A stretch of DNA of 64,000 nucleotides, taken from assembly GCA_935421135.1 (NCBI GenBank), contig OW285194.1, positions 1,882,501-1,946,500 of the forward strand, in the 5' to 3' direction. The translations under genes were made by a program, and so were the position numbers. The notes beneath the pieces were generated by a model that was not told the DNA's origin, searched no databases, and saw only the letters and a program-made list of their open reading frames with translations. The DNA is from Bugulina stolonifera (Eukaryota; Bryozoa; Gymnolaemata; Cheilostomatida; Bugulidae). This document shows positions 2,519 through 45,408 of this stretch, one piece after another. Every line of letters begins with the position of its first letter. Position 1 is the stretch's first letter.

Positions 2519-2610
2519 ACAGTCACTATTACTATCAGTATCAGTATCACTATCACTATCACTATCACTATCACTATCACTATCACTATCACTATCACTA
2601 TCACTATCAG
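2519..2610. repeat. TATCAC microsatellite, left part
   Basis: A hexamer array of TATCAC with a few TATCAG variants abuts the left end of the long-TIR element. The same hexamer on the same strand resumes at 12149. The array is therefore direct, not inverted, around the element, as expected if the element inserted inside a pre-existing array. Confidence 0.85.
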
Positions 2611-3843
2611 TAGTATAGTCAGTGCACTTCTAGACAGACACGCACTCATTGACCCCTGTTTTCAACCAATCACAAGCCGGTATTTCCGATTTCAACCAAT
2701 CACAGAAGAGCACAAAAATTTTGCACACGACCTTGCCAAGGTCACCCCAAAATCCCCCCTTCTGATTGGTCGAAAAAACATTTGCACACTTGACCCCGAA
2801 CCCGGCCACGACCCCTTCCCTTCCTCCTTCCCACCCTCCTCCCCTCCCCCTCCCCCACCTCCCACTCCTCCCTCCTCCCCGCCACCGCCCTCGTCCCGTC
2901 CGCGCCACCGCCGTCGCCGCCGCCGCCACCGCCGCCCTCACCACCGCCGCCGCCGCCGCCACCACCACCGCCCTCACCACCGTCGCCGCCACCGCCGCCG
3001 CCGCCACCACCGCCACCACCACCACCGCCGCCACCACCACCACCGCCACCGCCGCCGCCGCCGCCACCACCACCACCACCGCCGCCGCCGCCGCCGCCGC
3101 CATCACCGTCATCACCGCCACCCCTCCTCCACCGCCGCCCACCCTCCCCACCCCGCAACCCCCACTCACCCGAACGACCAATCGTTTGAGGCGGTCAAGC
3201 CGCGTCCGCCCACGTTGCGTGCGGCGCCGACCGTACACGTGGAGGCGACGTCGGTGCCCCGTATCCACCGGGCCAAGCGACTAGGCAGCGGCCCGCCGCT
3301 TCTCCCGAGCCCTCCACTCGAAAAGCTTGTGATCTAAACGAGCGAATTCGGCTGCGCTTCTTCGCCTATAACTCTCATTAGCGATAAGAAGAAGTACTAC
3401 GGAAGGGATGGTTTATGATGTGCATCGCATTGTTAATAAAGAAATGTGTAAAGTCTTGGCTATAAATACACTGATGGGAAGAAGGGTTGGTTCTATGATA
3501 TACATTGTATTGACAATAAAGAAACGTGTGCATGTGTTAAGTCAGCATATATAATACATTAAATAAACTTTCCGCAATGGTGACAATAGAATGAATAAAA
3601 GATTGTGTACACGTGTTAAAACACAATTGAAAGAATAAAAGACACATATTTAAAAGAGTATGTCATATCTGTTATTAGCAAGAAAGTCTGTGTACATGTG
3701 TTAAGACAGTGTATATTATACATTAGATAAACTTTTCACAATGGTAGCAATAGAATAAATAAAAGGTTGTGTGCATGTGTTAAGTCAGCATTATGTAATA
3801 TATTAAATAAACTTCACAATAGTAGCAATAGAATAAATAAAAG
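2611..3843 (+). repeat. Left terminal inverted repeat of copy 1
   Basis: The outer part has three CCAAT-type boxes (about 2665, 2695 and the reverse GATTGG near 2763). A 250-bp GCC/ACC trinucleotide tract follows (about 2880-3130), then a CpG-rich unique stretch to about 3340. The inner part is AT-rich, with degenerate repeats containing 'cacatgtgttaagtcagca' and AATAAA-like motifs. Long poly-Gly, poly-Ala and poly-Thr/Pro frames run through the GCC tract on both strands; they come from the triplet repeat and are not annotated as genes. Confidence 0.85.
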
Positions 3844-3860
3844 AGGGGTTTAGGTACTTA

Positions 3861-5309
3861 TTACTCATCTTCATCAGAAGTCGTAGGAGCTATAATGTTT
3901 ACGACTTCGGTCTCAGCATACTCTAATTGATATGCTCCAGCTCCAAACTCTTGACACAGTCTTACCTACAAGATGATTTTAGTTTTTTACTCAGACGAAT
4001 ATCACTCAAGGTGGACAAAGCAAGAAATCTATACTTCTTTATGTTGTTGGTCCCTTACCATATCTGCTGATTTGTAGAGGTGAGCTAGTTGTTGAGGAGT
4101 TTCACTTTTGTAGTTACGAACTTCAGAATCAGCTCCCAATCTTAGACATGTATGTAGACATTCGTAGTCTTCATTCTCTATGGCAATGTGAGATGGGGCA
4201 TATCCATCTCCCATTCGCTATAATATCAAACAAGAGAATAGAATTAAACTCCCCATCTAACTTATCAATTCGATCTACTCTACTTTTATTCCACTGTAAT
4301 GTATTCACTTACCCTCATATCTAAGTCAGCCCGAGTATTTTTTTTTAGTACTTTTAGTGCCTCTCTATGCTTGCTGCTATGCGCTGTTTCAACAATGAGG
4401 TGGACTACACTCCTTCCATCATGATTGTAGCTCTGTACATTGTCTTGGGGAAGTGATTTGTAAGGAACTCTGAAGTATGGATGCTTTACTTCTGCTCTGG
4501 TCAAACTTGTGGTTAGAGCATGAATAACCTTAGCTCTACCCAGACGTGCAGCAATGTGAAGGGGGGTGTCACCTTCCAAATAAACATTAGCAATATAGAT
4601 AAGTATCGAATTGTTACAAGTTTTGCAATACTATATTTTTTAACAAGCAATGCATGCAAACATTGGTGCTATAAAACACTAACCCCAAGCATCGGCTATT
4701 GCTCCATCCGCTCCCCTTGTGATGATGAGACGAATTAGTGAATCCGAACAATAAGACTGTACAGTTAGGTGAAGTAATGTCTGCCGATTCGCATTCTTTG
4801 TATTCAGTTGTTTGTGACTCCTCGCAACAAATACCGCGAGTGCAATGGCTCTCTCATCTCTATCTCGGGCTGCTTCTAGTACCTCACTACATCATTTAGC
4901 ATGATATTTGTTTTTCACATAGTTGAGAGGTAGTTATATGGGAAATTTGTCTATCATATTTTATTTTGATCATAAAAGACAATACGAAACAAAAAAAAAA
5001 AAAAAAATAGTTGGAAGTATGTATAACTTACAACTCTTCATCCTTTCCATCTTGCTCCCAAAAGATAGAACGAATTTCTTCTAGTAACTGTGTGCTAAGC
5101 TTATTACGAATATCGGTTAAAGGATCCCATTTCTGCCAATCTAGAGGTAAGCTTTTTTGGAGAAAGAGCTCAGACACCCCCTCAAATAAGTCTTTATTCT
5201 CATACTTGCTTTGTTCTGTACATCTTTCCACTGTTACCTTCATCAGCTCTTGGTTTATAGGAGTCATTAGCTTGTTGCTATACTCGCTTGATCCATATCC
5301 ACTTTCCAT
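3861..5309 (-). CDS. IkB-like ankyrin-repeat protein, five exons (copy 1)
   Basis: Exons on the minus strand are 5309-5032, 4886-4684, 4572-4313, 4217-4059 and 3965-3861. All junctions are GT-AG, phases agree, and the spliced frame is 334 codons, close to IkB-alpha length. Residues 2-7 are ESGYGS, matching the DSGxxS-type beta-TrCP phosphodegron with Glu for Asp. About six ankyrin-type repeats follow, with cores such as QTLLHLTVQ, DTPLHIAARLG, GRSVVHLIVE, APSHIAIENE and ETPQQLAHLY. The C-terminus is short and acidic (TSDEDE). This order (degron, ankyrin block, acidic tail) is that of IkB/Bcl-3 proteins, which hold Rel/NF-kB dimers in the cytoplasm. The start follows a canonical TATA box by about 90 bp. 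It is transcribed away from the minisatellite and paired with the divergent 526-aa gene. NF-kB inhibition is inferred, not shown; a vankyrin-like role is an alternative. Confidence 0.82.
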
Positions 5310-5394
5310 GCTATTTGTGTGCTAACCTTCTTTAATTTCTATTAAGAACAGACTGGAGCTAGAAAGAGTTAACTAAACTACTGTTTCCACCTCT

Positions 5395-5440
5395 CTTTAT
5401 ATAGTGAATAAAAAGATACAAATAAAGCTGATTGGCTAAC
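5395..5440 (-). promoter_or_regulatory. TATA and CCAAT boxes of the IkB-like gene
   Basis: On the minus strand ACTATATAAA (5406-5397) lies about 90 bp before the start codon, and AGCCAATCAG lies about 30 bp further upstream (near 5437-5428). The arrangement is conserved in copy 2 (near 16416-16460). The minisatellite begins immediately upstream. Confidence 0.75.
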
Positions 5441-5447
5441 AGCATAT

Positions 5448-6436
5448 ACATTGGAGTGCATTGGAAACACATCAGAGTGCATCGAATCACATCGGGAAAG
5501 ATCGAAAACACATAGGGAAACATCGAAACACATCGGGAAAGGTCGAAAACACATCGGGAGAGGTCGAAAACACATCGGGACACATCGAATCACATCGGGG
5601 GAGGTCGAAAACACATCGGGACACATCGAATCACATCGGGGGAGGTCGAAAACACATCGGGACACATCGAATCACATCGGGGGAGGTCGAAAACACATCG
5701 AATCACATCGGGGGAGGTCGAAAACACATCGGAGGAGGTCGAAAACACATCGAATCACATCGGGGGAGGCCGAAAACACATCGAATCACATCGGGGGAGG
5801 TCGAAAACACATCGAATCACATCGGGGGAGGTCGAAAACACATCGAATCACATCGGGGGAGGTCGAAAACACATCGAATCACATCGGGGGAGGTCGAAAA
5901 CACATCGGGGGAGGTCGAAAACACATCGGGACACATCGAATCACATCGGGGGAGGTCGAAAACACATTGAATCACATCGGGGGAGGTCGAAAACACATCG
6001 AATCACATCGGGGGAGGTCGAAAACACATCGAATCACATCGGGGGAGGTCGAAAACACATCGGGACACATCGAATCACATCGGGGGAGGTCAAAAACACA
6101 TCGGGTTACATCGGGGAAGGTCAAAAACACATCGAGACACATCGAATCACATCGGGGGAGGTCGAAAACACATCGGGGGAGGTAAAAAACACATCGGGTT
6201 ACATCGGGTTACATCGGGTCACATCGGGGAAGGTCGAAAACACATCGGGACACATCGAATCACATCGGGGGAGGTCGAAAACACATCGAGACACATCGAA
6301 TCACATCGGGGGAGGTCGAAAACACATCGGGGGAGGTCGAAAACACATCGGGTTACATCGGGTTACATCGGGTTACATCGGGTTACATCGGGTTACATCG
6401 GGTTACATCGGGTTACATCGAATCACATCGGGATGC
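5448..6436. repeat. CACATCG minisatellite between the divergent genes (copy 1)
   Basis: About 990 bp of nested tandem repeat. The basic word CACATCG recurs every 10-11 bp. The commonest larger unit is about 31 bp (AATCACATCGGGGGAGGTCG plus AAAACACATCG), with 10-bp GGACACATCG and GGTTACATCG variants. The latter forms a homogeneous run at about 6347-6416. It lies between two TATA promoters and is present in both element copies, so it is a candidate upstream activating or insulating array. Open frames of up to 244 codons cross it only because the repeat lacks stops in some frames. Confidence 0.9.
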
Positions 6437-6467
6437 AATAAATCAGACTAAAAAAAGGCAAATCACT

Positions 6468-6497
6468 TCTGATTGGACAGAGATTTCCATAAAAGCA
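6468..6497 (+). promoter_or_regulatory. CCAAT (reverse) and TATA-like boxes of the 526-aa gene
   Basis: CTGATTGGAC (CCAAT in reverse, near 6469) is followed by CCATAAAAGC (6488-6497), about 110 bp before the ATG at 6604. It mirrors the promoter on the other side of the minisatellite. Both boxes are conserved in copy 2 (near 17231-17260). Confidence 0.65.
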
Positions 6498-6603
6498 AGC
6501 GTGAGAGAGGATTTTTATCATTACCACTCAACCACCTAGTAAAGACTTGCAACTCTGTGGATATTTACTAATTCCTCTGAATAAACATCACTCAACAATT
6601 AAT

Positions 6604-9600
6604 ATGGTGAGTAAACTTATTTTAATATGTATTTTAGTATGAATTTACTCATTTGAGTTAACATTGGGACTAATTCTATTTTAGTAGTGATATAATACTC
6701 CCTTGGTATGACTAGAGCTTAGAAACTTTGTAAGCTTATGTATTAAACTGTTTTGATTCTCAACATGAGAGCAAGTATGTAGAGATCTGATCTGTCTATA
6801 CTACAATTTGTGTGACCGGAGCTTAGAAGCTTTATATGTGGTGAGATTTTTTTCAATATGAGTAGTTATACCACTAGTAGTGTAATAAGTATCAAAACAG
6901 TTTATTACCACTTGTACTGGCTATACTAGTACATCCTAGCTATTTTAATATGTATTTTAATATGAACTTACTCATTTGAGTTAACATTGGGGCTAATTAT
7001 ATTTTAGTAGTGGTATAATTCTCCTTTGGTATGTCCAGGGCTTAGAAACTTTGTAAGCTTATATATTAAACTGTTTTGATTCTCAACATGAAAGCATGTG
7101 TGTAGAGATCTGCTCTGTCTATACTACAATTAGTGTGACCATAGCTTAGAAACTTTATAAGTGGTGAGATTTATTTTCAATATGAGTAGTTATACCACTA
7201 GTAGGGTAATAAGTATCAAAACAGTTTATTACCACTTGTACTGACTATACTTGTACATCCTAGCAAAGAAGTATATTATCAAGTGTAGCCTATACTCTAC
7301 ATCCAAGACTATACTGTACTAAAGTGGCCTATCACAATACTTGGGGTGGACTTGCTGCTAAAAAGATTAACTGGATAATTCTAATGAATAGGTCTGCACT
7401 AAAGTGATTTATTACACTACTTGGGATGAACTTGTTGCTAAAAAGATTAACTGAATAATTCTAATAAATAGGTCTACACCAAAGTGATTTATTACACTAC
7501 TTAGGATGAACTTGAAGCTAAAAAGACTAACTGATTAATTCTAATAAATAGATCTGCACTAACACAAGAGTAATTTATCTCTCTGTTTGGGAGGAGCTTA
7601 CCATCAGAAAGACTCAATTGGTTGAAAAACACATAAAAAGTAAGGGGTGGTATTTTTGGTTTTTTTTCTGTCTTATACTGATTATTCACTTCAAAATTAA
7701 TTCTTGCTAACACATGTTCTGTTTATCTGTTCTTGTTTCTATTCCCCAGTGACTATGGTGAGTTGGTGGTTTTATCCACACAGTTAAGGCTTTAGTATAT
7801 ATTATTACTTGTTATTTAACTTGCCTATGCTATTCATTCTAAAAGTAGTTGTTATCAGTATTCTTATTCTCTTGCTCAATAACTATAGGGATTAGTATTT
7901 TTGTATACTTGACTTGTACACTACCACTATGCTCATGTTTCCTATATATTTTTATTCATTCTTATTTTCTTTGTTTAGTAACTATGTTGCATTAGTAGTT
8001 CCGTTTACTTGACTTATGCTTTGGTATATGTTTATTACTCTACATATACTTACAGGCTTCTACATCTAAATATCAAAGAAAGAAATATATAAGAAAAATT
8101 AAAACATCAAAAAAAGGTACGAAGTATATGATTACGTACGACTCGGAAGACAGAAGACGAATCTCGAGGAAAAGAATCCCATCTCCAGAAATGGTTAGTC
8201 TATTATCTTATTTGTTCACACATGCATTACACCTTCAATCCACTATGGTGTTGGGTTTCTAAGATGTCAAAGGAGATTACTGACATTTCTGCAGAAGTAC
8301 ATGTTAGTTACACATAATGATGATGTACTTTTTTATACTATAAGCCTCTTACCATGTCTAGAATGTCAAAAGAGACTACTTCCTTTTTAAAACCAGATGT
8401 TAATTAGTCATAGTATGATTTTCTCTAATTCTATAAGTCTCTTACCATGTCTAAGATGTTAAAGATTAGTGATATTTTTATTATAAGTATTGCACTTTCT
8501 TTCTTATGTATTATTTTTATCAATAAGACACTTTTTTTTTTTTCTTTTCTTATGTGAAAAAATATAACATAAATTACAACTGGTTTTCTTATGTTGATGA
8601 TGTATTTCTCTTTATGTGAGTAAATAGACAGGCTTTAGTAGACTTGCTTAGTACTTAGAGTGCCAGTTTTTTCATCAAATTCTTCAAAAACCATATATTA
8701 CAAATAGCTATGTTAATGTAGTTTGTTAATTAGTCACTGCACATTTTATTTACATTATAGAATGAAAAAGAAACAGAACTAGGGGAAGAAGAGATTGCTT
8801 TATTTGAACAATGTGGGGGAGTAGATGGCTTCGAGATAGGTAAGAATGATTTAGTATCTATTTGTAGATTTAGAATCTTTTTTTTTTTTCTGATTTACAA
8901 GTAAGTCATATGTTCTCTCTCACTTATTCTTGTTATTTTCTTTCTTTTTTAGGACTCAGAGCAAAGTCGATATGTAAGGGGGGTCTAAGATTCTATGTCT
9001 TTGTTAGTGATGAGACAAAAAGAAGACTGGAGATGTCACTAACAAAGCCATTTGAATCGGATGACCCCTGTTTTTTATGCAATAAGAATGTTGGGCACCG
9101 ACGAGGTGTCCACATTCAACAGCATTTTTTGCTCCGAATCTGTTTTTGCTATCACATAACAGTAGATGATGAGGGGATGAATAGACACTACAACTTTCCA
9201 TCTAATCATCATATTGATGGAAAGCCCTGTCACCGACACATCTCATTCAACACACGCTTTCTAACAGATATCTATTCACTAAAAAAGACCATATCCTTTT
9301 TGCAAAGGGTCACTGGTCACTCTCCACCTTCCAAAATACTCATCCCCGCATACACTCCAACAACTGTTGGTGGGGTAGTATACCCTCCCTTCTTTAAGGG
9401 GATGTCTACTACTCCATTCTCTTTAAAGTCTGGGGTGTGCTCTTCACAATTTCCTCTCCCTTCTCACCGTCATTTTGATTCAGATGCTTCTTCCATCAGT
9501 AACTCTCTTACTAATGGAGACATTTCCATCTCTACTTCTTCTCTTACAACTACTACTATTACTACTACTCCTTCTACTACTTCTTTTCCTCCACTCTTTT

Positions 9601-10313
9601 CTTCACATTCACCCTCTCATTCTCCTGAAAGATCTGTAAAGTCTGGGGTGTGCTCTTCACAATTTCCTCTCCCTTCTCACCATCATTTTGATTCAGATGC
9701 TTCTTCCATCAGTAACTCTCTTACTAATGGAGACATTACCACCTCTACTTCTTCTCTTACAACTACTACTATTACTACTACCATTACTACCACTCCTTCT
9801 ACTGCTTCTTTTCCCCCACTCTTTTCTTCACATTCACCCTCTCATTCTCCTGAAAGATTTGATGATACAGTTACCACTGTTTCGATACCTACTTCTACTC
9901 CCACCTCTTCACCTGCTCCACTCTTTTTCTTAGATTCACCCTCTTTTTCTCTTGGAAGGTCTAATAATACAATTACTAGTCTTTCAATACCTACTTTTAT
10001 TACTACTTCTACTACTACCACTTCTTCCTTTTCTTTAGCTTCACCCTCTCTTTCTTTTGGAACAGAGCTACTTAGCTCGCAATCTCCTTCTTGTTCGTCT
10101 GAACTCAATCTTAATACCCCCACCACTATTACCCCCATAGAAGAGGAGACTGTCAGTGAACTAGTTGATCGAAGCAGACTCCCCCCATCTTTTTTCTCTG
10201 GAGCAGTTGAGTATTACCGCTCTGCCATTTTTCATCTCAAGAAGAATGGGTATCACAGAGAGGTAATAGCACAAGCTGAAGCTTACCTTCGAGTCAGTGA
10301 AGAAAAGCTCTAA
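6604..10313 (+). CDS. Four-exon protein of unknown family, 526 aa
   Basis: Exons are 6604-6606 (ATG only), 8056-8193, 8761-8839 and 8953-10313, with GT-AG junctions and matching phases. The N-terminus (about residues 2-47) is Lys/Arg-rich and nuclear-localisation-like. A short acidic segment follows (ETELGEEEIALFEQ). Residues about 80-210 form the only globular-looking part. It is rich in Cys and His, with CFLC, a GVHIQQH segment, CFCYH and PCHRH, suggesting metal binding. The middle is Ser/Thr/Pro-rich and contains a tandem copy of about 70 residues (GVCSSQFPLPSH to SPSHSPER, twice). The C-terminal 55 residues look helical (VEYYRSAIFHLKKNGYHREV). I do not recognise the family. No catalytic DDE triad is obvious, so it may be a DNA-binding regulator, an unrecognised transposase, or cargo. 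Confidence 0.72.
6622..7560. repeat. Tandem duplications inside intron 1 of the 526-aa gene
   Basis: A block of about 325 bp (starting TTTTAATATGTATTTTA) occurs at about 6622-6940 and again at 6942-7262. It is followed by three to four copies of a roughly 70-bp unit containing ACTAAAGTGATTTATTACAC and AAAAAGATTAACTG (7313-7560). The same arrangement is in copy 2 (17384-18310). There is no coding potential. A second ATG directly followed by GTGAG stands at 7755-7757 in the same intron. Confidence 0.75.
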
Positions 10314-10439
10314 TCATCTTTTCTTTTTTCTCCCACTCTCTTTCTCCCACTCTCTCTCTCTGTAGTGTCTCATTCCCTCTGCATTTACTTTTATGTGATA
10401 TCAAATCAGTGAGGATTTTTTTAAATTATTTTTTAAATT

Positions 10440-10869
10440 ATTATATAATGGTATTCTAACACTTATACACATCCTTTTATACATTCTATTGCTACTTTTG
10501 TAAAAAGTTTGTTTAATGTATTATATGTGCTGACTTAACACATGCACACAGCTGTCTCTTGCTATAATAGCTATGACATACTCCTTTACATATGTGTCTT
10601 TTATTCTTTCAATTGTGTTTAAATCATATTATAATGATATTTCAACATGTGTACACAATCTCTATTTATTCTATTGCTACTATTGTGAAAAGTTTATTTA
10701 ATGTATTATATATGCTGCCCTTAACACATGTACACAGACTTTTCTTGCTAACAATAGCTATGACATACTCCTTTACATATGTAGCTTTTTTTATTCATTC
10801 TATTGCTAGTGTTGTAAAAAGTGTATTTAATGTATTACATAATGCTGACTTAACACATACACTCAATCT
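10440..10869. repeat. Subterminal tandem repeats inside the right TIR
   Basis: Degenerate units contain CTTTTATTTATTCTATTGCT, TTTAATGTATTA and 'gacttaacacatgcacac', alternating with TAGCTATGACATACTCCTTT. They extend the inner TIR homology with extra copies not matched on the left, so the right arm carries more units. The 3' UTR of the 526-aa gene probably runs into it. Confidence 0.7.
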
Positions 10870-12148
10870 TTTATTTATTCTATTGCTACTATTGTAAAAA
10901 GTTTATTTAATATATTACATAATGCTGACTTAACACATGCACACAACCTTTTATTTATTCTATTGCTACTATTGTGAAAATTTTATCTAATGTATAATAT
11001 ACACTGTCTTAACACATGCACACAGACTTCCTTGCTAATAACAGATATGACATACTCTTTTAAATATGTGTCTTTTATTCTTTCAATTGTGTTTTAACAC
11101 GTGTACACAATCTTTTATTCATTCTATTGTCACCATTGTGAAAAGTTTATTTAATGCATTATATATATATATATGCTGACTTAACACATGCACACGGTTC
11201 TTTGTTGTCAATACAATGTATATTATAGAAACAACCCTTCTTCCCATCAGTATATTTATAGCCGAGACTTTACACATTTCTTTATTAACAATGCAATGCA
11301 CATCATAAACCAAGCCTTCCGTAGTACTTCTTCTTATCGCTGAAACCAAGCCTTCCGTAGTACTTCTTCTTATCGCTAATGAGAGTTATAGGCGAAGAAG
11401 CGCAGCCGAATTCGCTCGTTTAGATCACAAGCTTTTCGAGTGGAGGGCTCGGGAGAAGCGGCGGGCCGCTGCCTAGTCGCTTGGCCCGGTGGATACGGGG
11501 CACCGACGTCGCCTCCACGTGTACGGTCGGCGCCGCACGCAACGTGGGCGGACGCGGCTTGACCGCCTCAAACGATTGGTCGTTCGGGTGAGTGGGGGTT
11601 GCGGGGTGGGGAGGGTGGGCGGCGGTGGAGGAGGGGTGGCGGTGATGACGGTGATGGCGGCGGCGGCGGCGGCGGCGGTGGTGGTGGTGGTGGCGGCGGC
11701 GACGGCGGTGGCGGTGGTGGTGGTGGCGGCGGTGGTGGTGGTGGCGGTGGTGGCGGCGGCGGCGGTGGCGGCGACGGTGGTGAGGGCGGTGGTGGTGGCG
11801 GCGGCGGCGGCGGTGGTGAGGGCGGCGGTGGCGGCGGCGGCGACGGCGGTGGCGCGGACGGGACGAGGGCGGTGGCGGGGAGGAGGGAGGAGTGGGAGGT
11901 GGGGGAGGGGGAGGGGAGGAGGGTGGGAAGGAGGAAGGGAAGGGGTCGTGGCCGGGTTCGGGGTCAAGTGTGCAAATGTTTTTTCGACCAATCAGAAGGG
12001 GGGATTTTGGGGTGACCTTGGCAAGGTCGTGTGCAAAATTTTTGTGCTCTTCTGTGATTGGTTGAAATCGGAAATACCGGCTTGTGATTGGTTGAAAACA
12101 GGGGTCAATGAGTGCGTGTCTGTCTAGAAGTGCACTGACTATACTACT
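10870..12148 (-). repeat. Right terminal inverted repeat of copy 1
   Basis: Inverted counterpart of 2611-3843. The outer 640 bp are almost identical (one substitution in the GCC-tract frame was seen) and contain the same CCAAT boxes and triplet tract. Near 11340-11380 a short duplication of 'aagccttccgtagtacttct' is unique to this arm. High arm-to-arm identity suggests recent activity or gene conversion. Confidence 0.85.
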
Positions 12149-12266
12149 ACTATCACTATCACTATCACCATAACTATTACTATAACTATCACTATCAGTA
12201 TCACTATCACTATCGCTATCACTATCAATATCACTATCAATATCACTATCAATATCACTACCAACA
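12149..12266. repeat. TATCAC microsatellite, right part
   Basis: Continuation, on the same strand, of the hexamer array interrupted at 2610. It contains TATCAG, TATCGC and TATCAA variants. It marks the outer edge of the right TIR. Confidence 0.85.
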
Positions 12267-13984
12267 GCATAAATCACTTATGATAACCACGTTGTATGCC
12301 ATTTAGACTGCTACTGTGAGGTTATCTCCCCTGATCATACTAGAGATGAGTATTACATGTACATGCAGGTGCAGTAGTGTATAGTTAATCTACAAACTAA
12401 CAATCATACAATGATATCTACTTCCTTCTAGATTACATACTAATACATGTATGCCATCTACTACTTGTATTCAGAGTTATTCTCTCTTGCCTATTGATAT
12501 GACAAGGATAGACAACTCAGGTATATCCTTCATGTAAGACAAGACATCCACGAAAATATAACTACCCTAATTATTATATTATAATTATATACTACTAACA
12601 ATAGCTTGGATAATGTAGAATACTGGTATATAGCACTATTTGGAGTTATCTATCTTCTAGTAGATAAGTGGTTGATTTAGATGCTTACTGTGGAGTTGTA
12701 TTCTCTCGTCCTCTCTGCCGACGCCTTTCCCCGTGACTATGTTGCTGCTGCAGGATATATCCACACATTTGCAATCGACAGGTTTTGATGGACCTGTATA
12801 TAGGGTAGGCGATTCCATCCAGCTACAATTGCTCCTGTGCCTCATATTATAAAAGTCCTTGGGGTCATGCAAGCCAGCATGGCTCCAGGGCAACTCTTCT
12901 ACCCCTGCCAAAAAGGCTATGTCATCTGGGCCTTTTACACAGAGTCAGTGAGTTTTTTTTATTACAACTACCTGCATGTATTTAGTAGGTACTATAATAG
13001 ATATTCCTATGATTCAAGTGGCAGGTCTGGTTCATAAATCAGCTGTTAAATAGAACTGTTGATGTACTTATTATAATACTATTATTACTTGTAGTCTTGT
13101 ACTATGCTTGGTTTATCACAGACCTGCCAACTCTGGTAGCAACATACAAGTATGTATATCCCTCCTTATTTGGTCCAATTGATATCTACAATTTCCATGA
13201 GATGTAGTGCCACATTGTGTTTAGTATTTCCACCTAGCCAGTGCAGTTATGCTATATAGCCCAAAGTTTAGCTTATTTTTACATTTTAATATTATATTGG
13301 AGAAGCATGGGCAGGCCTGCATTACCATTCAACACTGCATACAGTATGTTCAGTGCCAGCAATATGCTAACATGGCAAATACAATAATATTGTAGCACAG
13401 ATTATTATTATCTGCGCAATGCGCTTGGGCTATTAATAGTTGTATTCCACAGTCTCAAGGGCACGCTACATGGACGCACAAATTCTGCAAATATCGCAAG
13501 TTTAAAACACGGAAAAACTTGTTAATACGTGCTACACAGAAGTTGCGTTTTACTTGTAAACAAAAGAAGTTGTCTACTCATTAATTCAACTAAGGGCAAG
13601 AATAGATAAATCTAAGGAATTAATGTAGCCTGTGAGCCTACAAATGATATTTGGGGGTTGTGATACATTTACAATACATTCAATCTCTTTAAGATTAGCC
13701 CTTCCTTATTGTAGCTTAAATTAAAACCTCTACTATTTTAGCAATATATCGAACCATGCAGGTTAAAATATTTCTGCTCTGGGAAAACTAAGTTCGACTA
13801 AATGTTTCCTATACGTAACACGCATCTGAGAGGCTTGACTTAAATTTATGGTTGAGGATGGACATGATAGCTTGACTGTTGGTTTATTTTATTTTCCTGG
13901 TATTTATAATAAGGATTGAACTTCTCCCACAGTGCTGGTCTTTTGTTGGATTAATTTAAACAGCAGCGGTCAGTAGAATACAAG
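12267..13984. other. Spacer between the two element copies, with a small inverted-repeat element
   Basis: No gene is supported. An inverted repeat with ends TGGCAGGTCTG (13019-13029) and its complement (13119-13129) looks like a roughly 110-bp MITE. The minus-strand frame at 12657-12911 ends next to a possible donor (CACAGTAAG) and might be an exon, but nothing in its sequence is recognisable. Confidence 0.4.
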
Positions 13985-14282
13985 TAGTATAGTCAGTGCA
14001 CTTCTATACAGACACGCACTCGTTGACCCCTGTTTTCAGCCAATCACAAGCCGGTATTTCCGATTTCAACCAATCACAGAAGAGCACAAAAATTTTGCAC
14101 ACGACCTTGCCAAGGTCACCCCAAAATCCCCCCTTCTGATTGGTCGAAAAAACATTTGCACACTTGACCTCAAACCCGGCCACGACCCCTCCCCTCCCTC
14201 CTTCCCACCCTCCTCCCCTCCCCCCACTCCTCCCTCCTCCCTCGCCACCGCCCTCGTCCCGTCCGCACCACCACCACCACCA

Positions 14283-14314
<32 letters not shown>

Positions 14315-14760
14315 GACCGCCGCCGCCGCCACCACCGCCGCCGCCACCGCCGCCGCCGCCACCGCCCCCGCCACCGCCACCGCCGCCGCCACCGCCACCG
14401 CTGCCACCACCACCGCCGCCATCACCGCCGCCATCACCGTCATCACCGCCACCCTTCCTCCACCCCCGCCCACCCTCCCCCGCAACCCTCACTCACCCGA
14501 ACGACCGATCGTTTGAGGCGGTCAAGCTGCGTCCGCCTACGTTGCGTGCGGCGCCGATCGTACACGTGGAGGCGACGCCAGTGCCCCGTATCAGCGACTA
14601 GACCGCGGCCCGCCGCCTATCCCGAGTTACACCAGGGCGGGATTGTAAAAGATAAGCTGGTCTGATGGTGGTATTAATGCGAGGAAGGTTTGGTTCTATG
14701 ATATACATTGTATTGACAATAAAGGATAAACGAATAAAAGGTTGTGTGCAAGTGTTAGAT
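13985..14760 (+). repeat. Left TIR of copy 2, shortened
   Basis: It shares the CCAAT boxes and CpG-rich part with copy 1, but the GCC/ACC tract (about 14260-14450) has a different length and phase, and the inner repeats are mostly deleted. Long poly-Gly and poly-Pro frames across it are triplet-repeat by-products. Confidence 0.75.
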
Positions 14761-14889
14761 TTTGCCTGCCAATAGAGTTTAGTAGGAGACTGAGAAAAAT
14801 GTTAAAATAGACACATTGTGATGAAAGGGTAATAGAGAGAGAGATGAGTCTAGGTACTTATTACTCATCTTCATCAGAAGTTTTAGGAG

Positions 14890-16328
14890 CTATAATATGA
14901 TGTTTACGACTTTGGTCTCAGCGTACTCTAATTGATATGCTCCAGCTCCAAACTCTTGACACAGTCTTACCTACAAGATAATTTTAGTTTTTTACTCAGA
15001 CGAATATCACTCAAGGTGGTCAAAGCAAGAAATCTATACTTCTTTATGTTGTTGGTCTCTTACCATATCCGGAGATTTGTAGAGGTGAGCTAGTTGTTGA
15101 GGGGTTTCACTTTTGTAGTTACGAACTTCAGAATCAGCTCCCAATCTTAGACATGTATGTAGACATTCGTAGTCTTCATTCTCTATGGCAATGTGAGATG
15201 GGGCGTAACCATCTCCCATTCGCTATAATATCAAACAAGGGAATCGAATTAAACTCCCCATCTAACTTATCAATTAGATCTACTCTACTTTTATTCCACT
15301 GTAATGTATTCACTTACCCTCATATCTAAGTCAGCCCGAGTATTTTCTTTTAGTACCTTTAGTGCCTCTCTATGCTTGCTGCTATGCGCTGTTTCAACAA
15401 TGAGGTGGACTACACTCCTTCCATCATGATTGTAGCTCTGTACATTGTCTTGGGGAAGTGATTTGTAAGGAACTCTGAAGTATGGATGCTTTACTTCTGC
15501 TCTGGTCAAACTTGTGGTTAGAGCATGAATAACCTTAGCTCTACCCAGACGTGCAGCAATGTGAAGGGGGGTGCCACCTTCCAAATAAACATTAGCAATA
15601 TAGATAAGTACCGAATTGTTACGAGTTTTGCAACATTTATTTTTTCACAAGCAATGCATGCAAACATTGATGCTATAAAACACTAACCCCAAGCATCGGC
15701 TATTGCTCCACCCGCTCCCCTTGTGATGATGAGGCGAATCAGTGAATCCGAACAATAAGACTGTACAGTTAAGTGAAGTAACGTCTGTCGATTCGCGTTT
15801 TTTGTATTCAGTTGTTTGTGACTCCTCGCAACAAATACTGCGAGTGCAACGGCTCTCTCATCTCTATCTCGGGCTGCTTCTAGAACCTCACTACATTATT
15901 TAGCATGATATTTGTTTTTCACATAGTTGAGAGGAAGTTATATGAGAAATTTGCATTGAACCACTTCAGTTTTGTCTATCATATTTTATTTTGATCATAA
16001 AAGACAACACAAAAAAAAAAAGAAAATAGTTGGAAGTTTGTATAACTTACAACTCTTCATCCTTTCCATCTTGCTCCCAAAAGATAGAACGAATTTCTTC
16101 TAGTAACTGTGTGCTAAGCTTATTACGAATATCGGTTACAGGATCCCATTTCTGCCAGTCTAGAGGTAAGCTTTTTTGGAGAAAGAGCTCAGATACCCCC
16201 TCAGATAAGTCTTTATTTTCATACTCGCTTTGTTCTGTACATCTTTCCACTGTTAACTTCATCAGCTCTTGGTTTATAGGAGTCATTAGCTTGTTGCTAT
16301 ACTCGCTTGATCCATACCCACTTTCCAT
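14890..16328 (-). CDS. IkB-like ankyrin protein, copy 2, shortened tail
   Basis: Exons are 16328-16051, 15890-15688, 15577-15318, 15222-15064 and 14970-14890, with splice sites and phases as in copy 1. ESGYGS at residues 2-7 and all ankyrin cores are kept. Differences are few and mostly single residues (for example DTPLHI to GTPLHI, KSAD to KSPD). In the last exon a 5-bp insertion relative to copy 1 shifts the frame and gives a stop at 14890-14892, so the acidic TSDEDE tail is lost. The rest of the gene is open. It has the same TATA/CCAAT promoter and minisatellite upstream. It may still give a protein of about 326 aa. Confidence 0.72.
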
Positions 16329-16469
16329 GCTATTTGTGTGCTAACGTTCTTTAATTTTTATTAAGAACAGACTGGAGCTAGAAAGAATTAATTAAACTAC
16401 TGTTTCCATCTCTCTTTATATAGTGAATAAAAAGATACAAATAAAGCTGATTGGCTAACAACATATACA

Positions 16470-17197
16470 TTGGAGCGCATTGGAAACACATTGGAGTGCA
16501 TCGAATCACATCGGGAGAGATCGGAAACACCTAGGGGAACATTGAAACACATCGGGAGAGGACGAAAACACATCGGGAGAGGTCGAAAACACATCGGGAG
16601 AGGTCGAAAACACATCGGGGCACATCAAATCACATCGGGAGAGGTCGAAATCACATCGGGGCACATCGAATCACATCGGGGGAACATCGAAACACATCGG
16701 GGAGCTTCGGAAACACATCGGGGCACATCGAATCACATCGGGGGAGGTCGAAAACACATCGAATCACATCGGGGGAGGTCGAAAACACATCGAATCACAT
16801 CGGGGGAGGTCGAAAACACATCGAATCACATCGGGGGAGGTCGAAAACACATCGAATCACATCGGGGGAGGTCGAAAACACATCGGGGAGCTGCGGAAAC
16901 ACATAGGGGGACATCGAATCACATCGGGGGAGTTCAAAAACACATCGGGGGACATCAGACCACATCGGGGAGCTTCAGAAACACATCGGGGTACATCGAA
17001 TCACATCGGCGGAGCTCGAAAACACATCGGGGGACATCGAATCACATCGGAACACATCGAATCACATCGGGGGAGGTCGAAAACACATCGGGACACATCG
17101 AATCACATCGGGGGAGGTCGAAAACACATCGGGTTACATCGGGTTACATCGGAAACACATCGGGTTACATCGGGATACATCGAATCACATCGGGATG
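16470..17197. repeat. CACATCG minisatellite (copy 2)
   Basis: Same basic word and 31-bp unit as at 5448-6436, but shorter (about 730 bp) and with different variants (GGGGAGCTTCGGAAAC, GGGGCACATCG). The array has evolved independently since the copies separated, while the flanking TATA/CCAAT boxes are conserved. Confidence 0.88.
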
Positions 17198-17365
17198 CAA
17201 TAAATCAGACTAAAAAAAGGCACATCACTTCTGATTGGACAGAGACTTCCATAAAAGCAAGCATGAGAGAGGATTTTTATCATTACCACTCAACCATCTA
17301 GTAAAGACTTGCAACTCTGTGGATATTTACTAATTTCTCTGAATAAACATCACTCAACAATTAAT

Positions 17366-18960
17366 ATGGTGAGTAAACTTATTTTAATATGTATTTTAAT
17401 ATGAATTTACTCATTTGAGTTAACATTGGGACTAATTCTATTTTAGTAGTGATATAATACTCCTTTGGTATGACCAGGGTTTAGAAACTTTGTAAGCTTA
17501 TATATTAAACTGTTTTGATTCTCAACATGAGAGCAAGTATGTAGAGATCTGATCTGTCTATACTACAATTTGTGTGACCAGAGCTTAGAAACTTTATAAG
17601 TGGTGAGATATATTTTCAATATGAGTAGTTATATCACTAGTAGTGTAATAAGTATCAAAACAAGTTTATTACCACTTGTACTGGCTATACTAGTACATCC
17701 TAGCTATTTTAATATGTATTTTAATATGAATTCACTCAATTGAGTTAACATTGGGACTAATTCTATTTTAGTAGTGATATAATTCTCCTTTGGTATGTCC
17801 AGGGCTTAGAAACTTTGTAAGCTTATATATTAAAGTGTTTTGATTCTTAACATGAAAGCATGTGTGTAGAGATCTGATCTGTCTATACTACAATTAGTGT
17901 GACCAGAGCTTAGAAACTTTATAAGTGGTGAGATTTATTTTCAATATGAGTAGTTATACCACTAGTAGTGTAATAAGTATCAAAACAGTTTATTACCACT
18001 TGTACTGACTATACTAGTACATCCTAGCAAAGAAGTATATTATCAAGTGTAGCCTATACTCTACATCCAAGACTATACTGTACTAAAGTGGTCTATCACA
18101 ATACTTGGGGTGGACTTGCTGCTAAAAAGATTAACTGGATAATTCTAATGAATAGGTCTGCACTAAAGTGATTTATTACACTACTTGGGATGAACTTGTT
18201 GCTAAAAAGATTAACTGAATAATTCTAATAAATAGGTCTACACCAAAGTGATTTATTACACTACTTGGGATGAACTTGATGCTAAAAAGACTAACTGACT
18301 AATTCTAATAAATAGATCTGCACTAACACAAGAGTAATTTATCTCTCTGTTTGGGAGGAGCTTACCATCAGAAAGACTTAATTGGTTAAAAAGACACATA
18401 AAAAGTAAGGGGTGGTATTTTTGGTTTTTTTCTGTCTTATACTGATTATTCACTTCAAAATTAGTTCTTGCTAATACATGTTCTGTTTATCTATTCTTGT
18501 TTCTATTCCCCAGTGACTATGGTGAGTTGGTGGTTTTATCCACACAGCTAAGGCTTTAGTATATATTATTACTTGTTATTTTACTTGCCTATTCTATTCA
18601 TTCTAAAAGTAGTTGTTATCAGTATTCTTATTTTCTTGCTCAATAACTATAGGGATTAGTATTTTTGTATACTTGACTTGTACACTACCACTATGCTCAT
18701 GTTTCTTATATATTTTTATTCATTCTTATTCTCTTTGTTTAGTAACTACATGTATGTTGCATTAGTAGTTCTGTCTACTTGACTTATGCTTTGGTATATG
18801 TTTATTACTCTACATATACTTACAGGCTTCTACATCTAAGCATCTAGGAAAAAAATATATAAGAAAAATTAAAACAACAAAAAAAGGCACTAAGTATATG
18901 ATAACATACGATTCAGAGGACAGAAGAATTTTAAGAAAAAGAATCCCATCTCCAGAAATG
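17366..18960 (+). pseudogene. 5' part of the 526-aa gene, truncated (copy 2)
   Basis: Exon 1 (ATG at 17366-17368, donor GTGAGT) and exon 2 (18826-18960) are present and in frame; exon 2 is one codon shorter than in copy 1. Homology ends at 19217 before exon 3, so the Cys/His-rich part, the Ser/Thr-rich part and the C-terminus are missing. A changed exon 2 of 45 codons without a frame break suggests it was functional before truncation. Confidence 0.75.
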
Positions 18961-19490
18961 GTTAGTCTATTATCTTATTTGTTCACACATGCACTACAAC
19001 TTCCATCCACTATGGTGTTGGGTTTCTACACCTCATCACATTATTTCTAAGATGTCAAAGGAGATTACTGACATTTCTTCAGAAGTACATGTTAGTTACA
19101 CATAGTATGATAATGTACTTTTTTATACTATAAGCCTCTTACCATGTCTAGAATGTCAAAAGAGACTACTTCCTTTTTAAAACCAGATGTTAATTAGCCA
19201 TAGTATGATTTTCTCTAAAATACCAAAGAGAGATGTCCTAGACTAACCTGTACAACAGTTAGGTATATACATGTAGTTAGCTAGTGTTCATGGTCACACT
19301 TGAATGAAGTGTGTAGATAGTAACCAGCGTATAACAATATGCTGGTAGAGAACTGACGTTATCTGACCTAAAGCTGTCTCATTTCTCTGTGTGATAGTGG
19401 AAGTTCATATCACAGCTACTGCACTGTGTGCTGATGGATCATCGTTACTAGGTGTCTTTGTGACCTTTTGGATGGACGGGAAATTACAAG

Positions 19491-39589: not shown

Positions 39590-39801
39590 TGTTATATACT
39601 TAATTTACTGTGTTACCACTGGACCAACATAGACATAGCATGTTTACAGGTGGATAACTTGTATTCAACTGACTGCAAGTAACAAGTATATAATAATATG
39701 ACTCATGCATATTCTTGTAAACAAGTTAAGTATAACAGGAAGCAATCTATTTATATCATAGTGAATACTGGAGTGTTTTACCCTGTTAGCCAAACATTAC
39801 A
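39590..39801 (-). repeat. 3' LTR of the nested Gypsy element
   Basis: 212 bp, TG...CA ends, one difference (G against A in AATACTGGAGTG) from the other LTR. Confidence 0.93.
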
Positions 39802-39924
39802 CTCCTCCACGCTAACTTTGAACGGTGTCAGTGCTTTAAAAAATACATACCATTATTATAATAAAACTATTAGTCACTCTATTTATTGTTAGTCTGAACC
39901 ACAGACGTTATGTTACGGTGTCCA

Positions 39925-42900
39925 TTACTTATATCCAAGGTACTCTTCACTATAACGTACTGGTGGCTGCAATACCCTAGGACTACGGCGAACTGTCGTT
40001 GTTTCTGGCTCTATACGTACAGGGTCGCTATTATCTTCCTCATTACTATCGGGAACCGTATTGTGAGTTGTGTTTGTTGGTAGTATTGGTACGATAGGTC
40101 TATTTGTCACAATTGGCCCTGTTATTGTTTCCGTATTTGGCTTTCTGAACTCCTGTGATGCTTTCTTTAGATGGTCAATATGACAATACCTCACTCGGCC
40201 ATTTACTCTCACCAAGTATCCATGCGTGCCCTTGACTTTCAAAATTTCACCTTCTAGCCACCTAGGGCCTGCACCGCCTTGCCTTCTCTCTTTCACAGAC
40301 ACTTTCTCACCAGCTCCAAACCCTCTCAAACTAACCGACTTGTCATGGTATCTCTTCTGATTATCCTGTTGGATTCCCACAGACGTTGTCAGTGATGGTC
40401 GTACCAATGACAGCCGGCTACGTATCTGCCTCTTTAAAAACAACTCATCTGGCCTCCGTCCCGTAGTGCTGTGCGGTGTCATCCTATACCTCATAAGCAC
40501 ATTAGCTAACGCTATATGAAGTTTTAAATGTTTCATCTTATACATGCTTGACTTAATAACCTGCACCGCCCTCTCAGCAGCCCCATTGCTGGCTGCCTTC
40601 ATCTTCACTATCCCAGCATGCGTCTCGTGTAGCTCCGCTAAGATGCGTTCTTGCAGAGAATGGGGAATTACTACTCGGTAGCCATAGACTAAACAACCTT
40701 GATCTACTGATAAATAGTCTCTGTTTCTACAAAATGCCTCCAATTCTTCGTTGACCATGTTGCGGGGCCAGCCCTCCATAACATACAGCATTACACGTGA
40801 CAATTTAGAATCACTTGCAGTCTGCCTGGCTATTTCATCGGAACTGACTGGTAAATTACCTAGCATCGAGTTCACTCCTTCTATCGTTGCCACTTCGACC
40901 TCAATTTGATTAACTGGAAACCGTGACAGCATATCCGCATTACCGTGCTCCTTTCCCGGCCTGTACTCAATGTCATACTCATACGCTGCCAGAATCAGGG
41001 CCCACCGTTGCATTCTAGCGGCTGCTAAAGTGGGTATTCCAACTTTCGGCCCCAGCAAGGCTTGGAGTGGCTTATGATCTGTTACTAACACAAACTTTTT
41101 GCCGTACAGGTATTTGTGGAACTTAGTGATCCCATATTTCAGTGCCAACGCCTCCTTTTCTATCTGGCTGTAGTTCTTCTCTGCGTCTGTCAGAGTTCTA
41201 GAACCAAAAGCTACTGGTCGTTCATTTCCTTCCACAACATGGCTCAACACCGCTCCAACCCCATAGGATGAGGCGTCACAACTTAGCTTTATAGGTAGTT
41301 TCTGGTCATAATGAACCAACACGGAACTCCCTGACAACAACTCCTTACATTTAGCAAATGTCTGCCTACAAGACTCATTCCAATCCCATGCTGCCTCCTT
41401 ATTGAGCAGTCTGTGGAGTGGAGCCAATAGTGTAGATAAGTTTTTGATAAACTTCCCATAAAAGTTCACGGCTCCCAGAAAACTCCTTAGCTCTGAGACA
41501 TTGGTAGGTGTTGCTGCTCCCCTTAGAGCCTCTACCTTCTCGTCTGTAGGACTAATACCCTCCTTACTAATCGTGTGTCCCAAGTAAGTTAGTTCACTCT
41601 TACGAAACTCACATTTATCTTTGCGCAAGCGAACTCCATGCTCATCTAGTCGTGCCAACACTCTCTTGAGTATCGACTCGTGTTCTTCGTCCGATTTAGA
41701 ACCAATAAGTACATCATCCAAATATATTGCAACCGGCAGTCCAGCTAGCATCCGCTCCATTACCGACTGAAAAATAGCAGGAGCTGTTGAAATACCATAC
41801 GCCAATCTGGTATGCCGATATAGTCCTTTATGTGTATTAATCACCAGGTAATCCTTACTATCCTCATCTAACTGTAGCTGCTGATAGGCCTGACTGAGGT
41901 CCAACTTGGTAAACACTCGTTTACCGGCCAGACCAGCTAAAATATCCTCTATACAAGGAATTGGGTGATTATGCTGCTTCAAACTCTGATTAATGGAGAC
42001 CTTGAAATCCCCACATAATCTAATAGCCCCATTAGGCTTAAGCACCACCACTATTGGAGATGCCCAATCGCTATGAGTAACCGGTTCCAAAACCCCTTCA
42101 GCTACTAGCCGATCTAATTCATGACCCACCTTGTCCTTTAATGCGTAAGCTACCGGTCTTGCCTTACAGAAGATGGGTTTTGTGCCATCTTTTACCTCAA
42201 TTTCTGCTTTGTATCCTCTTATTGTCCCAATACCGGTTTGGAAAATGCCTCCATCCTCAACACCCTCCGGTTCTAGCTTCTGTATTTGACTAACTGACAA
42301 CCAGTCTAGTCTAACCTGTGCTAGCCAGTCTCTACCTAAGAGTGGAGGTCGCTGCTCTCCAGACACAACAATCAAGGGTAACTTATGTGACTTATCCTGG
42401 TAACCAACATCTACTAGGGCTTCACCTCTTACTGCAATCACATCCTTTGTATAGGATTTTAGCATTCCCCCTCTATACTGCCTTAGACTGCCTTCTGGGA
42501 ATAGTTCCTTCCACTGACTGTGACACATTAACGAGACTGCTGCTCCAGTGTCTATCTCCATCACAACTGGTTTCCCATTTATGCTAACCGAAACCACGTA
42601 TGCCCCGCGATTGTTCTGATGCACTTTGTATACATACTGGTTTTCACTGCTTTCATCCACTGCACCAGCGTCCTCTATATGTTTTACTCCTTGCCCGTTG
42701 CAAACTTTCATCAGATGTCCCTTTTTTCCACATTTGTTACATGTAAGATCTTTGTATCTGCAGCGGGAAACAATATGCCCAAACCTACCGCAACAATAAC
42801 ATCTCACATTTTTGTCACCTTGTCTAAACATCTTTTGACCTACTTGATTCACGTTCTCCGTATCACTTGTACTCCCTACACTTGGTGTACTTTGTTCTGC

Positions 42901-43407: not shown

Positions 43408-43419
43408 CCTCGTCGCCAG

Positions 43420-43631
43420 TGTTATATACTTAATTTACTGTGTTACCACTGGACCAACATAGACATAGCATGTTTACAGGTGGATAACTTGTATTCAACT
43501 GACTGCAAGTAACAAGTATATAATAATATGACTCATGCATATTCTTGTAAACAAGTTAAGTATAACAGGAAGCAATCTATTTATATCATAGTGAATACTG
43601 AAGTGTTTTACCCTGTTAGCCAAACATTACA
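43420..43631 (-). repeat. 5' LTR of the nested Gypsy element
   Basis: 212 bp, partner of 39590-39801, adjacent to the primer-binding region at 43408-43419. Confidence 0.93.
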
Positions 43632-43635
43632 GTCC

Positions 43636-44865: not shown

Positions 44866-45408
44866 TTATAAGACAGGAGCAGTTGCTATCTGTGAAAAGA
44901 TAAATGGTAGATCTACAATTTGAAGTTTTTTTAATTCATTCATTTCTGTAGAGTATTTCTGTATAACGTATTGATATATAAAAGAATCATTAGCGTTTGT
45001 ATCACCGAGGTCATTTAACAAGTATATGATATGCTCGAGGCTGTAACCTCTAGCCATATGCGTTAGGAAGAATATACAATATTGTCCGCATACTGTACTG
45101 TATAAGCTCTGAAGTTTCGTGCTATTGAATGTCCACTCCTCACAAGAATCTATAACCCTAGCTATAGAATCGGAGTGAGTTGGTGGATATCCAAAACTGT
45201 CAAAGTATATTCCTTGGTTATGCTTTGTCTTGTAGACAGCTATCCAGTGTTCACCGGGATCTGTACGAGGTTTAGTGTTGACAACCATACAGCAGGGATA
45301 CTCCAAAGCTGACATTGGCACCAAATCATCGGAGAATACACCCAGAAAGTTAACTTTCTTCAACTTATCATCGTTCGCTAGCACTCTATATATTTGGTTA
45401 GTATTCAT
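44866..45408 (-). CDS. PRO: Adenain-like cysteine protease, 180 aa
   Basis: The frame is intact. The catalytic set can be read as His54 (GEHWIAVY), Asp70 (YFDSFG) and Cys107 (STVCGQYC), with Gln100 seven residues before the Cys, the spacing known for the adenovirus maturation protease. In Polintons this enzyme is thought to process capsid precursors. Its start lies two bases after the stop codon of the major capsid gene, so both are probably expressed from one transcript. Confidence 0.92.
   Translation of the reverse strand: MNTNQIYRVLANDDKLKKVNFLGVFSDDLVPMSALEYPCCMVVNTKPRTDPGEHWIAVYKTKHNQGIYFDSFGYPPTHSDSIARVIDSCEEWTFNSTKLQSLYSTVCGQYCIFFLTHMARGYSLEHIIYLLNDLGDTNANDSFIYQYVIQKYSTEMNELKKLQIVDLPFIFSQIATAPVL

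What the first reader, a model, noticed from the sequence alone, without database searches (positions are those of the whole stretch)
2611..12148. A long-TIR mobile element that carries an IkB-like gene
Two copies of a unit with 1.2-kb inverted termini contain the same divergent gene pair. One gene has the full layout of an IkB inhibitor (degron-like N-terminus, ankyrin block, acidic tail). IkB-like proteins are known as immune modulators in polydnaviruses (vankyrins), but I know of no DNA transposon described with such cargo. The element could dampen host Rel/NF-kB responses or use them as a transcription input. The gene assignment is by motif order; the role is inferred.
Basis: partly seen in the sequence, partly recalled or inferred. 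Interest (0 to 1): 0.92.

Follow-up and report, generated by a model that had tools for sequence, protein, structure and literature searches.

The report
Polinton satellite carrying host IkB gene
A jumping element from a virus-like family, found at more than a hundred places in its host genome, carries an intact relative of the host's own IkB-like gene, a likely brake on the NF-kB immune alarm, and it is probably moved and packaged by a sister element with the same ends.

Summary
Window 2609-12148 is one of about 365 elements with one shared inverted terminus (367+370 ends, control 0); 6-bp target duplications are perfect in 14 of 14 pairs tested. The family is Polinton-derived and comes in two main types. 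Type A (integrase 31-mer at 196 places) has integrase, ATPase, protease-like and jelly-roll capsid genes but no recognisable polymerase. Type B, the window's (IkB 45-mer at 135 places), has the IkB-like gene and a second, unknown gene. None of 48 intervals held both listed markers. The IkB-like gene matches one host locus intron for intron: 230 of 327 residues identical, dN/dS 0.085. It starts at an internal host methionine, so one of two degron-like motifs is missing. NF-kB genes are present. Two polymerase-bearing Polintons elsewhere in the genome share the outermost AGTAGTATA. I infer that A's integrase and capsid mobilise B, that helper polymerase copies it, and that the cargo dampens NF-kB. 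Binding, packaging and IkB phylogeny are untested. Copy 2 in the window is truncated.

The parts
2603..2608 (.). left target-site duplication ACTATC (lies in a CTATCA microsatellite, so weak here; perfect at 14 of 14 other pairs tested)
2609..3844 (+). left terminal inverted repeat, starts AGTAGTATAGTCAG; the outermost 150 bp are shared with type A elements
3861..5309 (-). IkB-like gene, five exons: 5309-5032 (ESGYGS motif), 4886-4684, 4572-4313, 4217-4059, 3965-3861 (acidic end)
5490..6432 (+). tandem array with CATCGGG core at 10/20/21/31-bp spacing, between the two divergent genes; arrays with the same core in type A and type C elements
8056..10313 (+). second gene, exons read by eye at 8056-8193, 8761-8839 and 8953-10313 (last one: 452 codons plus stop; Cys/His-rich start, Ser/Thr-rich middle); no Pfam match above cut-off, no protein relative found; 93 of 94 genomic match rows of the last exon free of stops
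10867..12148 (-). right terminal inverted repeat
12149..12154 (.). right target-site duplication ACTATC
13983..19218 (+). truncated second type B copy: left TIR (T allele at TIR position 25), IkB-like exons on the minus strand within 14861-16328, array; no last exon of the second gene and no right TIR found

Best explanation
Window 2609-12148 is a 9.5-kb element of a Polinton-derived family, without integrase, capsid or polymerase genes of its own, that carries an intact relative of the host's own IkB-like gene; it is predicted to be integrated and packaged in trans by a sister element with the same ends (type A), and its IkB-like protein would hold host NF-kB inactive. Shown: about 365 paired ends, 6-bp duplications, shared outer ends and CATCGGG arrays on types A and B, type A's integrase, ATPase and capsid gene, no PolB among the frames of the copies read, the host-like exons and introns of the cargo gene, and purifying selection on it. 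Inferred: A's integrase inserts B and A's capsid carries B; a protein-primed polymerase comes from separate PolB Polintons whose ends also begin AGTAGTATA; the cargo protein binds the host Rel protein, and because it begins at an internal host methionine and lacks the upstream DSGFES motif it would be harder to degrade than the host IkB, dampening antiviral transcription while the elements replicate. The role of the second gene is unknown; a replication or packaging role acting on the CATCGGG array is a guess.
For: 367+370 TIR ends, control 0 and 0. Perfect 6-bp duplications in 14 of 14 pairs (12 distinct sites), 0 of 176 wrong pairings. Integrase 31-mer at 196 places, IkB 45-mer at 135; 48 complete intervals on C1 and part of C2: 20 with a listed integrase match, 20 with a listed IkB match, 8 with neither, 0 with both. 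Type A: rve+Chromo, Pox_A32-like ATPase; capsid model matches PBCV-1, Sputnik and mavirus capsids; 7 of 10 type A frames match the Polinton at window 44866-53912 in the same order, 26-40% identity. Integrase frame open in 113 of 113 scored copies. Outer 150 bp of TIR equal to the reference in 24 of 30 A and 29 of 30 B end rows; alleles G, C and T at TIR position 25 each occur in both types. CATCGGG arrays in 6 of 6 A, 6 of 6 B and 2 of 2 C elements read. Host locus with the same middle-exon lengths and phases, 230/327 aa identical, dS 1.7, dN/dS 0.085. Copy 1 versus copy 2 dN/dS 0.125 (binomial p 2e-7). 136 of 140 full-length exon-1 rows without a stop (counted by hand). Host RHD exons at two loci. 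PolB-element terminus AGTAGTATA.
Against: No expression, binding or packaging data. The cargo keeps one degron-like motif (ESGYGS), so it may still be switched off by signalling, unlike polydnavirus Ank proteins. PDB scores rank generic ankyrins above Bcl-3, so IkB membership rests on layout, the host locus and a recalled IkB-alpha sequence. The capsid profile found no capsid in PDB by sequence; that assignment rests on the predicted fold. Three of ten type A frames (195, 145 and 451 aa) match nothing in the window Polinton. Open-frame counts come from the best-scored candidates and favour intact copies. Trans-mobilisation is inferred from shared ends only. Helper PolB rests on nine terminal bases seen in two PolB elements; beyond them the ends differ.
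Confidence: 0.6

Rival explanations
1. A and B are two obligate segments of one bipartite Polinton-type virus: A supplies capsid and integrase, B supplies the NF-kB brake and an essential replication or packaging function (second gene), and neither spreads alone.
For: Two types account for 46 of 48 intervals (2 of the 46 by shared flanks only), in similar numbers, and no interval holds both listed markers; three TIR alleles each occur in both types; both carry CATCGGG arrays; the second gene's last exon has a stop in only 1 of 94 rows.
Against: Nothing shows that A needs B; the second gene has no detectable relative and its fold prediction failed; shared alleles could come from recombination between ends.
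Confidence: 0.3
2. The cargo acts not as a constitutive inhibitor but as a signal-released switch: it is degraded on immune signalling like the host IkB and times element activity to infection.
For: The ESGYGS motif stands at the start of exon 1 in window copy 1, and the exon-1 copies compared differ from it little or not at all; purifying selection is strong.
Against: No kB-type site in the intergenic region, a weak test; the upstream host motif DSGFES is absent from the element.
Confidence: 0.12
3. The ankyrin protein is a generic ankyrin-repeat protein with no link to NF-kB.
For: Generic and designed ankyrins score higher than Bcl-3 in PDB searches.
Confidence: 0.08
4. Segmental duplication or assembly artefact rather than a mobile unit.
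For: Three of the 14 pairs on C1 share flanks, a local duplication; copy 2 in the window is partial.
Against: 12 distinct insertion sites each with its own 6-bp duplication; 367+370 ends over the genome.
Confidence: 0.01

Closest known systems
Polinton/Maverick elements (incl. adintovirus-like)
   Same: 6-bp duplications, termini AG..CT, and on type A an integrase, ATPase, protease-like and double-jelly-roll capsid gene in the order of the Polinton in this window
   Different: No PolB found in either type; genes are spread over two element types; type B carries an IkB-like gene and no recognised Polinton gene. The lack of PolB rests on the frames of six type A copies, of window copy 1 and of four further type B copies, and on element length
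Nematode Mavericks with wosp/krma cargo (PMC10680173, passages read)
   Same: A Polinton-type element carries cargo genes
   Different: Cargo there is proteases and kinases; here a host-type IkB-like gene on an element without capsid, integrase or polymerase genes
Polydnavirus vankyrins / Ank proteins (PMC3359993, passages; PMC3210807, abstract start in a listing)
   Same: Virus-borne IkB-like ankyrin protein; those bind Rel proteins in experiments
   Different: [quoted passage not shown] this one keeps a degron-like start and an acidic tail, and sits in an integrating TIR element
Polinton-like viruses (PMC11071308, passages read)
   Same: Capsid-bearing relatives, mostly without pPolB
   Different: Those mostly also lack RVE integrase and encode other replication proteins; type A keeps RVE integrase and shows no recognised replication protein
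Satellite/helper systems such as virophages (recalled)
   Same: Dependence on another element's genes in the same cell, as inferred here
   Different: Here the dependent unit shares the helper's termini and has no capsid gene

Membership tests
Polinton/Maverick | 6-bp target-site duplication and long TIRs | tested here: met
   14 of 14 pairs; arms of window copy 1
Polinton/Maverick | RVE-family integrase | tested here: met
   met by type A: rve 2e-11 plus Chromo. Type B itself fails: no integrase frame in window copy 1 or the B copies L041/42, L049/50, L054, L058, and no listed zero-mismatch integrase place in a B interval
[quoted passage not shown]
   no PolB among frames of six A copies and of the B copies; the 5 PF03175 matches on C1 and the one on C2 lie outside the TIR intervals listed (the list holds zero-mismatch ends only and breaks off in C2; the other 5 matches could not be placed). 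A and B are therefore filed as Polinton-derived, not as autonomous Polintons
Polinton/Maverick | double-jelly-roll major capsid protein, packaging ATPase, adenovirus-type protease | tested here: met
   type A only: MCP fold (no hit by sequence profile), ATPase Pox_A32 1.6e-6, protease 35% to the window Polinton's Peptidase_C5 frame (own Pfam hit only E 0.14, below cut-off). Not in B
IkB family | six ankyrin repeats with IkB-type spacing | tested here: inconclusive
IkB family | N-terminal phosphodegron and acidic C-terminus | tested here: inconclusive
   ESGYGS at residues 2-7 and end TSDEDE by sequence; the DSG-type consensus is recalled, and phosphorylation is untested
IkB family | clusters with IkB/Bcl-3 in a tree | not tested
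   no reference set was at hand; a host counterpart was found instead
IkB family | binds Rel/NF-kB | not testable with these tools
   only presence of host RHD exons shown
Polydnavirus Ank/vankyrin | IkB-like repeats without the regulatory N-terminal domain | tested here: not met
   degron-like motif present; contrast in PMC3359993 passages

The most novel reading that the evidence does not exclude
This is the first bipartite virus-like transposon: a Polinton genome split into a capsid/integrase segment and an immune-suppression segment with identical ends, the second built around a captured host IkB, both replicated by polymerase borrowed from ordinary Polintons in the same nucleus.
Probability: 0.33. 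Interest if true: 0.95.

Novelty: new variant of a known kind. Interest (0 to 1): 0.86.

Why it matters
If right, a chromosomal, virus-like element family carries a captured brake on the host's central immune transcription factor in more than a hundred copies whose exons are mostly open. That makes two questions testable in one genome: whether Polintons behave as viruses that must suppress innate immunity, and whether virus-like transposons can split their genome into co-mobilised parts. It also gives a case of gene capture with introns kept, so the cargo can be compared residue by residue with a host counterpart.

Tried and rejected
kB-type sites in 5310-6602: none, with 0.2 expected by chance, so a weak test; the transcription-input idea was dropped. 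PDB sequence search with single exons and with the host protein: dominated by designed and multi-repeat ankyrins, not decisive for IkB membership. Capsid profile against PDB by sequence: no capsid; the fold search answered instead. Second gene: no Pfam match above cut-off, no protein relative, fold mean pLDDT 33.5, useless. Type A 451-aa ORF, lying on the side where the window Polinton has its polymerase pieces: no relatives, no match to that Polinton. Relatives in viral contigs: none for IkB exon 3 or integrase; the capsid alignment had no stretch conserved enough. PHROGs gave little beyond integrase-type matches. Do PolB elements share the family's ends: only the outer nine bases in two elements; the best match over 35 bases had 15 mismatches. 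Segmental-duplication reading rejected by the duplications. Literature: among the rows listed (10 of 10; 4 of 4; 20 of 23; 1 of 1; 10 of 18; 0 papers; 8 of 26; 8 of 13) no title or abstract start described an IkB-carrying or two-part Polinton; only the papers cited were opened, by passages. No call named the host species.
Full report
What is there. Window 2609-12148 is bounded by inverted repeats of about 1.25 kb (95% over 1,282 columns; outer 806 nt fully complementary) starting AGTAGTATAGTCAG. Between them lie two divergent genes and a tandem array with CATCGGG core. The genome (235 Mb, 27 contigs, unnamed) holds 367 forward and 370 reverse matches of the 30-base terminus with up to two mismatches; the reversed pattern gives 0 and 0. 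That is about 365 elements, roughly 1.6% of the genome if each is 10 kb (an estimate).

It moves. All 14 TIR pairs tested have a perfect 6-bp duplication (12 distinct sites, because three pairs share flanks as a local duplication); 0 of 176 wrong pairings do. Window copy 1 has ACTATC on both sides but sits in a microsatellite. The 40 TIR matches scored over the full 1,190 bp are 99-100% identical (the best 40 of 940 candidates), so the spread of those is recent.

It is Polinton-derived and comes in two main types. Sister elements with the same ends carry integrase (rve plus Chromo), a Pox_A32-like ATPase, a protease frame with only a weak Peptidase_C5 hit, and a capsid frame. The capsid's closest relative in another data set is 99% identical (42 relatives); its model (pLDDT 82.7, 25 of the 42 aligned) matches PBCV-1, Sputnik and mavirus capsids (viral library), while a sequence profile found no capsid in PDB. 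Seven of ten type A frames match a separate Polinton in this window (44866-53912, minus strand) in the same order: integrase 40%, ATPase 38%, a 142-aa frame 36%, protease 35%, capsid 29%, minor capsid 27%, a 134-aa frame 26%; the 195-, 145- and 451-aa frames do not. No PolB was seen among the frames of at least 110 aa of six type A copies; 17 of 20 labelled A intervals measure 10.0-12.1 kb, which leaves little room for one. PF03175 has 11 matches in the genome; the five on C1 and the one on C2 lie outside the TIR intervals listed, and the other five could not be placed.

Counts. Integrase 31-mer: 113+83=196 places. IkB exon-3 45-mer: 62+73=135. Of 48 complete intervals on C1 and part of C2, 20 hold a listed integrase match, 20 a listed IkB match, 0 both, 8 neither. 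The 8 resolve as 3 type B by the second gene, 1 type B by its frames and exons (L049/L050), 2 probable A (flanks shared with an A locus) and 2 type C, repeat-rich, without a long frame other than repeat translations (L053, L055). The listings stop at 100 places, so these labels use listed matches only.

A and B belong together. The outer 150 bp of the TIR equals the reference in 55 of 64 end rows (24 of 30 A including 4 probable A, 29 of 30 B, 2 of 4 C; some ends were fetched twice); the rest differ at 1-3 positions, except L040 with 23 in a shifted stretch (counted by hand). Further in, the TIRs diverge. At TIR position 25 three alleles exist, and each is found in both types: C in A at C1:24267079 and C2:7560824 and in B at C2:5466507 and C1:17683105; T in A at C1:20170047, in window copy 2 (B) and in C at C1:36736541; G in most listed ends. 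CATCGGG arrays with 10/11/20/21/31-bp spacing occur in 6 of 6 A, 6 of 6 B and 2 of 2 C elements read (29-97 hits each), against 1 hit in 18 kb, 1 in 20 kb and 0 in 2.0 and 2.4 kb of background.

The cargo is a host-type gene. Searching exon 1 against the genome gave 150 match rows from 154 candidates. By hand count 140 cover the whole exon at 87-100% and 136 of these have no stop; 10 rows are partial or divergent. One of the latter is C5:15180327-15180599, at 48%, the only divergent row that covers nearly the whole exon without a stop. That locus (L059) has the same five exons in the same phases, with 67-, 86- and 53-codon middle exons, and no TIR motif. Element and host agree at 230 of 327 residues; over exons 2-4 dS is 1.72 (near saturation), dN 0.147, ratio 0.085. 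The host exon extends upstream and holds DSGFES before ESGYGS (L062); the element begins at the methionine of the second. I conclude that the gene was captured as DNA with introns, long ago, from this or a related lineage, and kept under purifying selection. Between the two window copies the ratio is 0.125 (19 synonymous, 9 other changes; p 2e-7); between copy 1 and L050 it is 0.27 (11 and 11; p 0.003). Another locus, C1:19047391 (L060, 68% over residues 1-53), is a broken relative.

IkB identity. Exon 2's best PDB match is Bcl-3 (4e-6, with MIB1 next), but exon 4 and the whole host protein score higher against designed and generic ankyrins. I therefore rest on layout plus the host gene, and leave the tree as a next step. 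The host has Rel-homology exons at two loci, three matches on C8 (one with a stop inside the match) and one on C1. The degron consensus is recalled, not from a call.

The second gene. Its last exon is free of stops in 93 of 94 match rows at 96-100% identity (the best 93 of 223 candidates scored). It has no relatives in the protein search, no Pfam match above cut-off and no usable model. The type A integrase is open in 113 of 113 scored rows (of 383 candidates). These samples favour intact copies.

How it likely works. Shown: shared ends, shared arrays, integrase and capsid frames on A, cargo on B, PolB seen on neither. Inferred: A's integrase inserts both, A's capsid packages both. The ends of two PolB-bearing elements (C2, C4), taken as the point where their 99.5% similarity stops, begin AGTAGTATA, the same nine bases as A and B, and then differ. 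A repeated triplet at the terminus is what some protein-primed polymerases use (recalled), so helper PolB is the likely replicase. The cargo would bind host Rel protein; polydnavirus Ank proteins do so and lack the regulatory domain (PMC3359993, passages), whereas this one keeps a degron-like motif. No GGGRNNYYCC site lies in 5310-6602, where 0.2 were expected.

Known background. Polintons encode PolB and a DDE integrase (PMC6431247, passages). Nematode Mavericks carry wosp and krma cargo (PMC10680173, passages). PLVs mostly lack both pPolB and RVE integrase (PMC11071308, passages). NF-kB is linked to pathogen responses in some sponges and cnidarians (PMC13042239, passages), and a sponge is reported to have two ankyrin proteins that appear to be IkB-type (PMC3553144, passages). 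Among the rows listed (several lists cut short) none described an IkB-bearing or two-part Polinton.

Noticed in passing
window 44866-59623 (minus strand): A separate Polinton with open protease, capsid, minor capsid, integrase and ATPase frames and a polymerase region in pieces; an inverted repeat at 53532-54237 lies in it. PolB is assigned by recalled motifs (NSAYG, DTDS); Pfam did not call it, and the genome search for PF03175 did not list it.
   Followed up: partly
window 39590-43635: Gypsy-like retroelement (by eye) with a 1169-aa frame, flanked by 216-bp direct repeats at 99%.
   Followed up: no
L053, L055 (C1:36736541, C1:17537473): Type C elements: family TIRs around long repeat arrays with no other long frame; L053 keeps an IkB exon-5 remnant with a stop, so some may be decayed type B.
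   Followed up: partly
L043, L039, L048, L051: In 4 of 6 type A elements the CATCGGG motif occurs in similar numbers on both strands, as if two arrays faced each other; in the other 2 and in the 6 type B elements read it is on one strand only (bar a single stray hit).
   Followed up: partly
L040 3547-4924; L049/L050 frame of 960 aa: Other mobile elements (hAT-like and LINE-like by eye) inserted inside an A and a B copy.
   Followed up: no
G000:C1:14200019, 14298528, 14359535: Three loci (one labelled type A, two probable) share identical flanks, a local duplication of 10.5-kb elements with surroundings.
   Followed up: no
L059/L062 host IkB locus: The host IkB-like gene has two degron-like modules (DSGFES and ESGYGS), each followed by an NQEL motif, as if duplicated.
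   Followed up: partly
P0001: A capsid protein 99% identical to type A occurs on a 3.4-kb contig of another public data set; whether free virus or host DNA is unknown.
   Followed up: no
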